Positions 12,981 to 64,000 of a stretch of 64,000 nucleotides of DNA are shown in pieces. The stretch is from Herpomyces periplanetae (lineage: Eukaryota > Ascomycota > Laboulbeniomycetes > Herpomycetales > Herpomycetaceae): positions 165,497 to 229,496 of the forward strand of contig WMKJ01000006.1 of NCBI GenBank assembly GCA_009733715.1, read 5' to 3'. Both the position numbers and the translations under genes were made by a program. The notes below the pieces were generated by a model that saw only the letters and a list, made by a program, of their open reading frames with translations, made no database searches and was not told the origin of the DNA. Numbering within the stretch: position 1 is the stretch's first letter; each line of letters starts with the position of its first letter.

Positions 12981-15131
12981 CTAAACATCATGGTTGGCGT
13001 GGCGAAACATGGTTAACTCGGACTCGTCGGGAGGAGGATAAGAACGAAAAGCCGAAGACCTCGGGGTCAATGAACGAGTTCGTAATTGGAATATCGCGCG
13101 AAAGACCGACTTGGAAAGTTTGGATATTGAGCTCGACATGGAATTAGAAGTTGTAGAATATTTGTTAGGATGGGCAGCCGAACTTGACGCAGGACGCTCA
13201 GACCTAGTAAAAGAAGATCGAGAATGATGAGAATGGGAATTAGACACATGAGGAGATAGCATATCATAATCATCAAGTGGTACAGGAGGTACATTCCGAG
13301 GAGAAGATTGCCGAAAACGATGGAACAGGCGAGTTTTCTTCACGAACCAAAGGACAATGACAAATATAATAATCAAGAAAAACAGCTCGACTAACCGGTT
13401 TGATAAGAAGTACACATTACCACTATCACTCGATTGATCGTTGGAAGATTCAATGTTCGGAAGACTTGATACAGGCGTAGTTGTGGAGAGAGGTGAATGA
13501 TCTTGCTCAGTATCATCATCGACGGGGGTAGCGGGAGCGGGTGCAGGAGGAATAATAACGGATGGAGAATCGGATTTAATAGATTCAAAAGATCTTGGAG
13601 GAGGTTTGGTTGGAACAGGTTTGTCAGAAGGAAAAAAGGGATTTCCGTTCAAAGTTGAAAAACGATAATTATCGGGAACGTCGGAAAGTTTGACGTTCAT
13701 AAATCGATATATAACATCACGAATCTGGGCTGGGTAATTATAAGATACCATATGAGAAGCATTATAAACGAGAGCATATGATAAATTGCGGGATTCTTGA
13801 ATATAACCGGCCGGTAAACCATTGAATTGCCATGTCATACGAGGAGCTTCAACACCAGGCTCAATTTGTAGACCTTTAATACCTCCATTATCCAAGTTCT
13901 GGATAGCATCTTCAACACCTTTTGCGTTACAAACGAAGTCTTGATCACCTTCAAATATAAGTACACGAACTTTCCTGAGTAGTTCGTGCAAAAATAATCC
14001 CGAAGATTCGGAACGCAGACCTTTAAGTTTATTATAAACTTGACCATTACATTCTACCCATCCCGTGGAACCTGGATAGTCAACGTTTAAAGCTTCTTTA
14101 ACATCTTTTCGACGTAAATACGATGTTATATGAGCAGTTTCGGGAGGCCAGTTTGCTCCACATGAAGGGTAAGAAGAACGAACACGAATATCATAAGTAA
14201 TAAAACATCTTCCATCGTAGTCAAGGGTAGCTTTGAGAACGTCAACCATAGCTTGTTCACAAATGTCAATGAAAATTGAATCTCGATCTTCGCCTTCTAA
14301 TTCTTTTAGGCACTGATAACGGGTGTGTTCCAACATTTCGGTGACATTTTCTAAATTTGGTACTAATTTTCGTTCATAAGCAAAGGGCACATAGGAAGCA
14401 TATTGTTCGGGTGAAGAAATCCAAGGGTTTCCCAAAGCTAAACCTTTAAGATTCCATTGTTGAGATGCATCGACTTTTTCATTTCTACGTAGTACAGCAC
14501 GACCAAAGTGAGGAACGTATTGTCCACCAAAAGATTCCCCGGTAATGTAAAGTTCATCATTCAAACGTTCAGGGAAAATTTGGTACCATTGTTCCATAAA
14601 TTTTACCAGATAATCCGCAACCTCATATAATTCTGTAAGTAATTTATCCGATTCAGCATAACTGAATCCTGTTCCAATTGGGCTGTCTATATAGAGAAGG
14701 TTAGCAAATTCGGCCCAAGACCCTTCATTTCTAACTAAGTTTATGTCGGAATTAACACGATAATGTCCATTTTCCATTAGAGCTCCATCTTCAGAGCTAC
14801 AACCTGGCCCGCCGTTAAGCCAAATTATGGTACGAGGAGCATCCGAAGGGTATAATGATTTTATGTGCCAGAAAAACATGCTGGCGTTAATATTTTCATT
14901 AACCGGGATATTTCCCGCAAACATTTCCGGTCTGGGATCATCTGCAGTAGAAGGAGGTTGACTTGGTAATTCTTTGACGCGATATTCTTCTGAACTTTTG
15001 AGATTTGGGGAACCCAACACGTTTAACGATGAGAAGAATAAGGTAAAAATCCCGTAGAATATTAATAAGTATAAATTTCTGCGAATAAATCCCATTGTAA
15101 ATTTAGGATACATCACCCCCGCTACCACCAT
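12981..15131 (-). CDS. KEX1: Kex1-type serine carboxypeptidase
   Basis: A peptidase S10 enzyme of the late Golgi that trims C-terminal Lys/Arg from Kex2-processed precursors. 716 residues. There is a hydrophobic signal segment at about residues 18-40, the oxyanion/N-terminal motif WLNGGPGCSS at 104-113, the catalytic Ser200 in TGESFGGQY, the catalytic Asp in EGDQDFVCN and the catalytic His in YNASHMV. A single transmembrane helix (LFFLIIIFVIVLWFV) near residue 590 is followed by a cytosolic tail of about 115 residues. The soluble vacuolar carboxypeptidase Y lacks this C-terminal anchor, which is why I call Kex1. A Pro/Thr/Ser-rich stalk precedes the helix. Confidence 0.93.
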   Translation of the reverse strand: MVVAGVMYPKFTMGFIRRNLYLLIFYGIFTLFFSSLNVLGSPNLKSSEEYRVKELPSQPPSTADDPRPEMFAGNIPVNENINASMFFWHIKSLYPSDAPRTIIWLNGGPGCSSEDGALMENGHYRVNSDINLVRNEGSWAEFANLLYIDSPIGTGFSYAESDKLLTELYEVADYLVKFMEQWYQIFPERLNDELYITGESFGGQYVPHFGRAVLRRNEKVDASQQWNLKGLALGNPWISSPEQYASYVPFAYERKLVPNLENVTEMLEHTRYQCLKELEGEDRDSIFIDICEQAMVDVLKATLDYDGRCFITYDIRVRSSYPSCGANWPPETAHITSYLRRKDVKEALNVDYPGSTGWVECNGQVYNKLKGLRSESSGLFLHELLRKVRVLIFEGDQDFVCNAKGVEDAIQNLDNGGIKGLQIEPGVEAPRMTWQFNGLPAGYIQESRNLSYALVYNASHMVSYNYPAQIRDVIYRFMNVKLSDVPDNYRFSTLNGNPFFPSDKPVPTKPPPRSFESIKSDSPSVIIPPAPAPATPVDDDTEQDHSPLSTTTPVSSLPNIESSNDQSSDSGNVYFLSNRLVELFFLIIIFVIVLWFVKKTRLFHRFRQSSPRNVPPVPLDDYDMLSPHVSNSHSHHSRSSFTRSERPASSSAAHPNKYSTTSNSMSSSISKLSKSVFRAIFQLRTRSLTPRSSAFRSYPPPDESELTMFRHANHDV

Positions 15132-61800: not shown

Positions 61801-63945
61801 CTACATAAATGGACATGAAGGTGGATGATGATGATGAGGTCGATGCTTGGGAGGAAGGGGTGGCGGCGGTGGCGGTGGCGGTGGCGGTGCGGCAGGAGAG
61901 GCAGAATCATCATCGGAGGGCGATGAGTCATCGGTGGACGAAGTGCTGGACGAAGAAGACGACTCAGCCACGTCGAGAGCAGCGGTGTATGCCAAGTACC
62001 ACGTGAGAGAAGCACCGCCATCGAGGTGGGCGGGGGCGAAGTCGGACTTGGCAAAGTAGGAGTAGGCGGAGTGTGGCTGGACCAGGGCAAGGTTGGCGTA
62101 GATGAGGCCTTGCCATCCGCCTTCAATTTTATCGACGCGATGATCGTTAAAATAAGTATTCCATTCTTCTTCAACGAACTTTTTGCGTCGGATCAAAGCG
62201 GTACACGGGTTGATGGGAATCATGTGAATACCCTGGATGTACTCGATGTTTTCACCAAAATATGTAGCATGATCAATTTTATTCTCAAATAGGATGCCTG
62301 TAACTTTATTGGCGATGATCTCGGGAGGTTGAACTTTATTATCACTTGTCATTAAAAAGTAGGAATTGAAAGTTCTGGCTTGAATTGCGAGCATTAAATC
62401 ACCTCTTCTTTCCATGCATATATCACGGGTTACTTTACCCCACATTTTGATAGCGTAGGATGCAAAGGAATCTTCACTTGTACTCTCTTCATCTTTACCA
62501 TCGGCACTTTCAAATAGTCCTTTGGCCCAACTATGGCCATGATACCAATCAAATGACCGAGAGAAGGGAAACTGATTATCCGTTACTGAATTAGCATAAT
62601 CTTTCACCAGCGTATTTACCCATCTGGTATTGCGAGAATTATTCTCATGTAGCCATTCCTTGTCAATATATCCGATAAGGGCAGCTGTGAATACAAAATA
62701 CGAATAGTGAAAATGGTGATCATTGTACCAGGAGTTACCAAAATCTGCTCCACAATCACCTTTGATTCCTGCCGTAGATATTGCTCCTTTCCACGTTTCA
62801 TCGTAAGTAAGTGGATTCTGCTGCGTGTTATTCACAAATTCACTGTAAGCGTCTTTCAGCTTACTTAAACCTTGCTGGGTTAATTGGTCATCGTGCAGAA
62901 CATCGTGAGTTACGTATAATATCATGGCAAATTTCGCCATAGCTTTCCCACTAAAGTACATACTATCAAGGCATGCTTGACAGCGCACATCCTGTGTTAA
63001 CTCTTGAGCCGCAACCTTCCCGATCAATTTAATTGTAGAGTATGGTAGCTTTGAAACTGATCCTGATCCCGGAGTCCACGGTGCGAAATCCATGTCTTCG
63101 GGTAACTCCTCACACAAATTCCATTTGTTGGATTGAACTGCTGTTGCCAAGCCCTTGGTAGTGGTCTGTAAGCAAAGTGGACGTCGAACGCATTCCTGAG
63201 TGTCTGAATCAAATGAGCATAAATGATGATTCAAAGCGAACATTAATAAGGGATTATCACCCGTAACATCCCATTCCAGAGTATACGTACAACTCAACTT
63301 CGAAACGTTGGCCGAAAGATTACAAGATGTCGCAAAACTACCGCTGGATCCATCATAAATATCTTCACATTCACTACTTGAATCGGATAATTTGCACACC
63401 TGAATTAATCCCGAATAATTTGGTGGTCCATGAACGGTAGTGGGATTAACTAAATTGAGTGACCCTGGAGCGGGTGGTGGTGTTAGGTAGATGAGCCATG
63501 TATGATTATCTTCGAGAAGCGCATAGCATTTTAACGTTCTTCCGTTATTTATGATACGTCCGGGTGTAAAAGTGCGAAAGAATACTGATGACTGAAAAAG
63601 TGGTGTAGCAAATGAGTAAATGGCCGAAACAAAACCCATTCCTTGTAAAATGGGAAATGTAATACAGGGTGATGGAGAATTCGGATTGGCTGAAAGGTTA
63701 ACGTTCACGCTAAACGCCGTTGGAGAATCCAGGAATAAGCGAGCGGACGGTGTCAACTCTTGAGCAGATAGGATAATTGACTGAATGCCAATGGGATTAA
63801 TAAAGTATTGATGAGCTCCCGTACGCTTGACAGGTCCCAAAGCAATCTGGTAGCGATCAATGTGAGAAACACTCAATCCCCAACTTTGGGCATTACCTTG
63901 CCCCTTTGCCCATGATAAGGAGTACAAGTGAAGATTCCTTTGCAT
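61801..63945 (-). CDS. Endo-1,3-beta-glucanase, GH81 family, 5' end disrupted
   Basis: Eng1/Eng2-type glucanase acting on cell-wall beta-1,3-glucan in septum separation or sporulation. The open frame of 714 codons contains the family core: KGQGNAQSWGLSVSHIDRY near the N-terminus, GADFGNSWYNDHHFHYSYF, SFDWYHGHSWAKGL and DGKDEESTSEDSFASYAIKM. The tail is poly-Pro/His (PPPPPPPPPPLPPKHRPHHH), GGT-rich on the plus strand. The first nine codons (63945 to about 63920) are not genuine: from 63920 to the window end the sequence is the inverted copy of 62405-62485. The true N-terminus (signal peptide, start) is therefore missing. Annotate as 5' partial. Confidence 0.9.
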   Translation of the reverse strand: MQRNLHLYSLSWAKGQGNAQSWGLSVSHIDRYQIALGPVKRTGAHQYFINPIGIQSIILSAQELTPSARLFLDSPTAFSVNVNLSANPNSPSPCITFPILQGMGFVSAIYSFATPLFQSSVFFRTFTPGRIINNGRTLKCYALLEDNHTWLIYLTPPPAPGSLNLVNPTTVHGPPNYSGLIQVCKLSDSSSECEDIYDGSSGSFATSCNLSANVSKLSCTYTLEWDVTGDNPLLMFALNHHLCSFDSDTQECVRRPLCLQTTTKGLATAVQSNKWNLCEELPEDMDFAPWTPGSGSVSKLPYSTIKLIGKVAAQELTQDVRCQACLDSMYFSGKAMAKFAMILYVTHDVLHDDQLTQQGLSKLKDAYSEFVNNTQQNPLTYDETWKGAISTAGIKGDCGADFGNSWYNDHHFHYSYFVFTAALIGYIDKEWLHENNSRNTRWVNTLVKDYANSVTDNQFPFSRSFDWYHGHSWAKGLFESADGKDEESTSEDSFASYAIKMWGKVTRDICMERRGDLMLAIQARTFNSYFLMTSDNKVQPPEIIANKVTGILFENKIDHATYFGENIEYIQGIHMIPINPCTALIRRKKFVEEEWNTYFNDHRVDKIEGGWQGLIYANLALVQPHSAYSYFAKSDFAPAHLDGGASLTWYLAYTAALDVAESSSSSSTSSTDDSSPSDDDSASPAAPPPPPPPPPPLPPKHRPHHHHPPSCPFM
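62405..62485. repeat. Inverted repeat arm 1, inside GH81
   Basis: 81-bp segment whose reverse complement forms the last 81 bases of the window (63920-64000). It encodes catalytic-region residues of GH81 on the minus strand (TSEDSFASYAIKMWGKVT and flanks). The match is perfect and ends at the sequence GTACTC. Confidence 0.95.
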
Positions 63946-64000
63946 CCTACGCTATCAAAATGTGGGGTAAAGTAACCCGTGATATATGCATGGAAAGAAG
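63920..64000. repeat. Inverted repeat arm 2, window edge
   Basis: Perfect reverse complement of 62405-62485, continuing past the edge. On the plus strand it encodes the same GH81 catalytic segment, so a second, oppositely oriented copy of the gene begins here. The junction bears short shared bases. Confidence 0.95.

What the first reader, a model, noticed from the sequence alone, without database searches (positions are those of the whole stretch)
62405..64000. Perfect 81-bp inverted duplication of the GH81 gene at the window edge
63920-64000 is the exact reverse complement of 62405-62485. The minus-strand GH81 gene loses its true N-terminus at this junction, and the plus strand begins to repeat the gene's own catalytic segment. 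Perfect identity over coding sequence points to a very recent event, either a real inverted duplication/fold-back or, more likely, a chimeric join such as those made during multiple-displacement amplification of single cells.
Basis: partly seen in the sequence, partly recalled or inferred. Interest (0 to 1): 0.75.

Follow-up and report, generated by a model that had tools for sequence, protein, structure and literature searches.

The report
Amplification artefact at a contig end
The last 81 bases of this fungal contig are a backward copy of a stretch from 1.5 kb inside it, most likely a fold-back join made while tiny amounts of DNA were being amplified, so the glucanase gene it cuts short is probably intact in the living fungus.

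Summary
Window 63920-64000 is the exact reverse complement of 62405-62485 (81/81, 1434 bases between the arms), and a minus-strand GH81 glucanase gene loses its N-terminus there. The window edge is also the end of the contig (C186, 229,496 bases), so nothing lies beyond it. I searched 78 other contig ends of the same assembly. Eight of them, in 7 of 40 other contigs, carry a similar terminal inverted copy. Six have arms of 39-116 bases and loops of 1.1-5.8 kb; the other two are both ends of C138, which has 3,814-base inverted arms. In 264 kb sampled, exact inverted repeats of at least 20 bases (low-complexity aside) were three terminal ones and one tight hairpin. At least three contig ends carry Illumina adapter letters. 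Conserved residues suggest that the junction sits on about five shared bases. These features match published chimeras of multiple displacement amplification (MDA): inverted, under 10 kb apart, primed on short complementary stretches. I conclude it is a technical fold-back (about 0.94), most likely from MDA (about 0.88). Reads would settle it and were not available. The GH81 gene otherwise looks ordinary.

The parts
62405..62485 (-). inner (native) arm of the inverted repeat, inside the GH81 gene; encodes residues 487-514 of the ORF
   Evidence: continuous GH81 reading frame and alignment to 17 homologues across it
63920..64000 (+). terminal copy: exact reverse complement of 62405-62485, running to the last base of the contig; read as chimeric sequence
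63919..63920 (.). junction; about 5 bases of shared sequence (63920-63924, TACTC on the minus strand) inferred from conserved Tyr-Ser
   Evidence: inference from protein conservation; native DNA beyond 63919 was not found in the assembly
61801..63945 (-). GH81 endo-beta-1,3-glucanase ORF, truncated at its N-terminus; the ATG at 63945 and residues 1-8 come from the chimeric arm

Best explanation
A technical fold-back chimera at a contig end, most likely made during whole-genome amplification by MDA. Proposed steps: a growing strand copying the GH81 region was displaced after about base 63924 (after GAGTA). Its 3' end re-annealed to the same short sequence on a nearby single strand of opposite polarity at 62485, and the polymerase copied that strand towards 62405. 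Reads crossing this join extended the contig 81 bases past the junction. The true sequence beyond 63919 was not assembled there, so no competing path exposed the join and the contig stopped. Shown: the inverted copy, its position at the contig end, the recurrence at other contig ends, and that a search of the assembly did not find the missing GH81 N-terminus. Inferred: the use of MDA, the priming step, and low depth beyond the junction.
For: Exact 81-base inverted copy touching the last contig base. The same form at other ends: C37 start (86 exact, 98 of 99; loop about 1.6 kb), C58 start (40; loop 3025), C82 start (60 exact, 114 of 116; loop 4420), C106 start (39; loop 1068), C146 end (71 of 72; loop 5796), C170 end (69; loop 1888). 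Both ends of C138 also match each other: a 13,387-base contig with 3,814-base identical inverted arms. That is 8 of 78 other ends searched. Control: in 264 kb, apart from the terminal cases, one 21-base tight hairpin, low-complexity matches set aside. Direct same-contig copies of the searched ends appeared only in tandem or simple repeats (C43, C174). Illumina adapter letters at C58 end, C62 start and C75 start. Junction: residues 8 and 9 keep Tyr (17 of 17 homologues) and Ser (16 of 17), while residues 7 and 5 depart from Pro (17 of 17) and Thr (17 of 17); 0.40% of window 5-mers would keep Tyr-Ser. One GH81 gene found, with residues 1-71 of the homologue matched nowhere. Published MDA chimeras: 406 of 475 inverted, 337 of 406 inversions under 10 kb, most primed on 2-21 complementary bases (PMC1855051).
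Against: No reads, depth or library description were available, so MDA is not shown. Arm lengths vary (39-116 bases, and 3,814 in C138), so no single assembler k-mer length explains them; why this arm stops at 81 is not explained. The shared TACTC rests on protein conservation, not on native DNA, and His at residue 6 also agrees with 15 of 17 homologues although it lies beyond the five shared bases, so the exact point of the switch is uncertain. C138 could be a real palindrome or element. A real inverted duplication at this one place would give the same letters.
Confidence: 0.88

Rival explanations
1. A real, recent fold-back inverted duplication or palindrome in the chromosome: the arm continues as a second copy of the region, and the assembler stopped because both arms collapse into one.
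For: Perfect identity and a contig stop are what a collapsed recent palindrome would give. C138 shows long identical inverted arms.
Against: It would have to recur in 7 of 40 other sampled contigs, at their ends, with no comparable internal case in the 264 kb control. By my reasoning, collapse predicts one constant overlap (the k-mer length), but terminal arms are 39, 40, 69, 72, 81, 86-99 and about 116 bases. It would interrupt the only GH81 gene found.
Confidence: 0.05
2. A technical fold-back of another origin: library preparation, PCR template switching or mis-assembly, without MDA.
For: Adapter letters left on contig ends show untrimmed short-read data. Cross-contig shared ends of 77 bases (C31/C174), 99 bases (C46/C54) and 73 bases (C122/C119) suggest assembly-graph ends.
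Against: Loops of 1.1-5.8 kb joined in inverted orientation, with no non-tandem direct ones seen, fit the published MDA mechanism (PMC1855051). I recall no library-preparation step that gives kilobase loops so often (recalled, not searched).
Confidence: 0.06
3. A natural chromosome or linear-element end with a terminal inverted repeat.
For: The copy ends at the last base of the contig.
Against: It interrupts a conserved coding sequence, the other arm is 1.4 kb inside, and (TTAGGG)4 occurs once in the assembly, at C200:12242-12265, not here. Other telomere units were not searched.
Confidence: 0.01

Closest known systems
Inverted chimeras of multiple displacement amplification (Lasken and Stockwell 2007, PMC1855051; abstract, Results and Discussion read)
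   Different: Seen here only as assembled contig ends, not as reads; the amplification method is inferred.
Artificial palindromes in long reads after whole-genome amplification (PMC6218980; abstract and outline only)
   Same: Inverted self-copies created by amplification that disturb assembly.
   Different: That paper concerns long reads; this assembly carries short-read adapter letters.
GH81 endo-beta-1,3-glucanase of filamentous ascomycetes (best hit: Eremomyces bilateralis protein, 60% identity)
   Same: Both Pfam GH81 domains, with conserved residues throughout.
   Different: N-terminus replaced by residues from the inverted arm; a Ser-, Pro- and His-rich tail at the C-terminus of the ORF.

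Membership tests
MDA inverted chimera | second segment inverted relative to the first | tested here: met
MDA inverted chimera | joined segments usually less than 10 kb apart | tested here: met
   1434 bases here; 1.1-5.8 kb at six other ends
MDA inverted chimera | 3' end primed on 2-21 complementary bases at the junction | tested here: inconclusive
   about 5 bases (TACTC) inferred from conserved Tyr-Ser; native DNA not in the assembly
MDA inverted chimera | recurs at unrelated places in the same amplified sample, inverted far more often than direct | tested here: met
   8 of 78 other ends inverted; direct same-contig matches only in tandem or simple repeats
MDA inverted chimera | sample was amplified with phi29 polymerase; junction reads a minority | not testable with these tools
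   no reads or library record
real chromosomal inverted duplication | arm continues beyond the junction as a second copy of the region | tested here: inconclusive
   contig ends 81 bases in; a search with 62300-64000 found only that stretch itself and its two arms
GH81 glucanase | Pfam PF03639 and PF17652 above the curated cut-off | tested here: met
   280.8 and 519.7 bits against a cut-off of 25.6; N-terminal domain begins at profile position 36

The most novel reading that the evidence does not exclude
The fold-back is real DNA: this ascomycete carries a fresh inverted duplication that breaks its only GH81 glucanase, one of many microhomology-primed inversions spread over the genome.
Probability: 0.04. 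Interest if true: 0.45.

Novelty: not a real feature. Interest (0 to 1): 0.08.

Why it matters
Mainly as a warning. In the sample of this assembly about one contig end in ten (8 of 78) carries an inverted self-copy, and one sampled contig (C138) folds back over most of what was read. Genes that meet contig ends here can look truncated, rearranged or given false starts, and this GH81 gene should not be called a pseudogene or a rearrangement on this evidence.

Tried and rejected
Constant k-mer overlap: I considered that 81 might be the assembler's k-mer length. Terminal arms of 39-116 bases reject a single value, and the ends shared with other contigs are 77, 99 and 73 bases.

Missing N-terminus on another contig: a search of the assembly with homologue P0001 found only C186 (homologue residues 72-718) and the 25-residue echo in the inverted arm.

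Telomere at the contig end: not found, for (TTAGGG)4 only.

Source organism and paper: five paper searches gave general papers; I could tie none of those listed to this assembly. Two protein searches gave best hits at 60% and 45% identity, in fungi that I know as filamentous ascomycetes (recalled taxonomy).

Homopolymer ends: I first took the poly-C runs at the right-hand ends of C28 and C130 for Illumina dark-cycle poly-G. Their orientation does not fit that, so they are not counted as evidence.

Not counted as a fold-back: the C49 start has an inverted match 15 kb inside at 76% identity, but similar matches on C125, C76 and C108 (75-78%) point to a dispersed repeat.

I recounted and mended: the C75 adapter length, the C37 and C82 loops, the poly-C coordinates, which passages of the fungal papers I had seen, and the summary odds, which now agree with the confidence fields; those fields are unchanged.

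Full report
WHAT IS THERE. The window holds an exact inverted repeat, 62405-62485 against 63920-64000, 81 of 81 bases with 1434 bases between the arms. It is the only exact inverted repeat of 25 bases or more in the 64 kb, and chance is negligible. The window ends where its contig ends: it is C186:165497-229496 of a 13.79-Mb, 220-contig assembly, and C186 is 229,496 bases long. So the inverted copy runs to the last base of its contig, and the contig holds nothing beyond it to extend into.

THE GENE. The minus-strand ORF 61801-63945 (714 aa) matches both GH81 domains and solved GH81 endo-beta-1,3-glucanases. The best listed relatives are fungal, the closest at 60% identity. Residues 1-8 and two bases of codon 9 are written by the inverted arm. 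The match to the GH81 N-terminal domain starts at profile position 36, and the stretch corresponding to residues 1-71 of the closest homologue is missing. A search of the assembly with that homologue found one GH81 gene, this one, plus the 25-residue echo in the inverted arm. The inner arm encodes residues 487-514, a conserved stretch.

THE JUNCTION. In an alignment with 17 homologues that I chose from the 120 listed, residue 8 is Tyr in 17 of 17 and residue 9 is Ser in 16 of 17, as in the window, although the inverted arm supplies five of those six bases. Just beyond, the window has Leu where 17 of 17 have Pro, and Leu where 17 of 17 have Thr. Residue 6 (His) agrees with 15 of 17, which blurs the boundary. 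508 of 127,992 window 5-mers (0.40%) would keep Tyr-Ser. The simplest reading is that native and chimeric sequence share about five bases (TACTC) at the join and then part. This is inferred from protein conservation, because the native DNA was not found in the assembly.

OTHER CONTIG ENDS. I fetched 80 other ends: 40 left and 39 right ends of 40 other contigs, and the left end of C186. I searched 78 of them, 100 bases each, against the whole assembly. The poly-C ends of C28 and C130 were left out, and the C55 right end was not fetched. Eight of 78 ends, in 7 of 40 other contigs, have an inverted copy of their terminal bases on the same contig at 98-100% identity: C37 start, C58 start, C82 start, C106 start, C146 end, C170 end, and both ends of C138. 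The six short ones have arms of 39 to 116 bases and loops of about 1.1 to 5.8 kb. C138 is 3,814 bases, then about 5.8 kb (mostly not read), then the same 3,814 bases inverted: the form this artefact would take if the assembler walked right round it. Direct copies on the same contig were seen only in tandem or simple repeats (C43, C174). A 76% inverted match of the C49 start belongs to a dispersed repeat and is not counted. As a control, in 264 kb (20 contig starts of 10 kb, and the window) the exact inverted repeats of at least 20 bases, low-complexity ones set aside, were the terminal cases C37, C58 and C186 and one internal 21-base hairpin with a 2-base loop.

OTHER TECHNICAL MARKS. Illumina adapter letters (recognised from memory) stand at the C58 right end (17 bases), the C62 start (15) and the C75 start (12). 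Contig ends share 77 bases (C31 with C174), 99 bases (C46 with C54) and 73 bases (C122 with C119) with other contigs at 100%. These suggest that many contig ends in this assembly are technical stops.

WHAT MADE IT. Lasken and Stockwell (PMC1855051; abstract, Results and Discussion read) found, in MDA of one E. coli cell, that 406 of 475 chimeras were inverted and 337 of 406 inversions joined segments under 10 kb apart, that most were primed on 2-21 complementary bases, and that there was about one junction per 22 kb. Orientation, distance, recurrence and probable microhomology agree here. A contig end is where such a join can survive assembly, because no true path competes with it (inference). 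Uncultured fungi have been assembled from single cells with SPAdes (PMC6784888, passages) and single fungal cells have been amplified by MDA (PMC10470594, passages). I could not show that this assembly is of that kind.

RIVALS. A real inverted duplication cannot be excluded from letters alone, but it would need similar accidents at about one sampled contig end in ten. By my reasoning, collapse of real palindromes would give a constant overlap, which is not seen. Non-MDA library artefacts remain possible but fit kilobase loops poorly.

VERDICT. The feature is most likely a technical fold-back from MDA, not a feature of the organism.

Noticed in passing
G000:C138:1-13387 (L100, L101, L103, L104): Contig of 3,814 bases, about 5.8 kb (mostly not read), then the same 3,814 bases inverted with no mismatch; read here as a fully traversed fold-back. 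A real palindrome or linear element was not excluded.
   Followed up: partly
G000:C37 start, C58 start, C82 start, C106 start, C146 end, C170 end: Terminal inverted copies of 39-116 bases with loops of 1.1-5.8 kb, the same kind of feature as the finding.
   Followed up: yes
G000:C58:170437-170453, C62:1-15, C75:1-12: Illumina adapter letters left at contig ends.
   Followed up: partly
G000:C28:29225-29304 and C130:14589-14687: Long poly-C runs at the right-hand ends of two contigs; the orientation is not that expected of dark-cycle poly-G. The sequence just before the C130 run is 85% like the terminal sequence of C138, which has a shorter C run at the same place.
   Followed up: partly
G000:C174:82937-83105, C31:16100-16199 and C31:28711-28787: The end of C174 matches two separate places in C31, one direct (100 bases) and one inverted at the C31 end (77 bases), which suggests another fold-back, spanning perhaps 12.6 kb, and a second doubtful join in C31.
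   Followed up: partly
G000:C22:1-10000, C46:1-10000 (L012, L020): Two contigs start with 10 kb at 28.5% and 29.8% GC and no ORF of 200 aa, against 34-46% GC in the other 18 starts; AT-rich regions or a second organism.
   Followed up: no
window 61801-61974: The GH81 ORF ends in a Ser/Asp-, poly-proline- and His-rich tail beyond the conserved domain, not seen in the 17 homologues aligned; it may be read-through into an intron or a real extension.
   Followed up: no
window 12981-15131: Kex1-like serine carboxypeptidase ORF, 38-46% identical to the 120 listed relatives, so the organism appears divergent.
   Followed up: no
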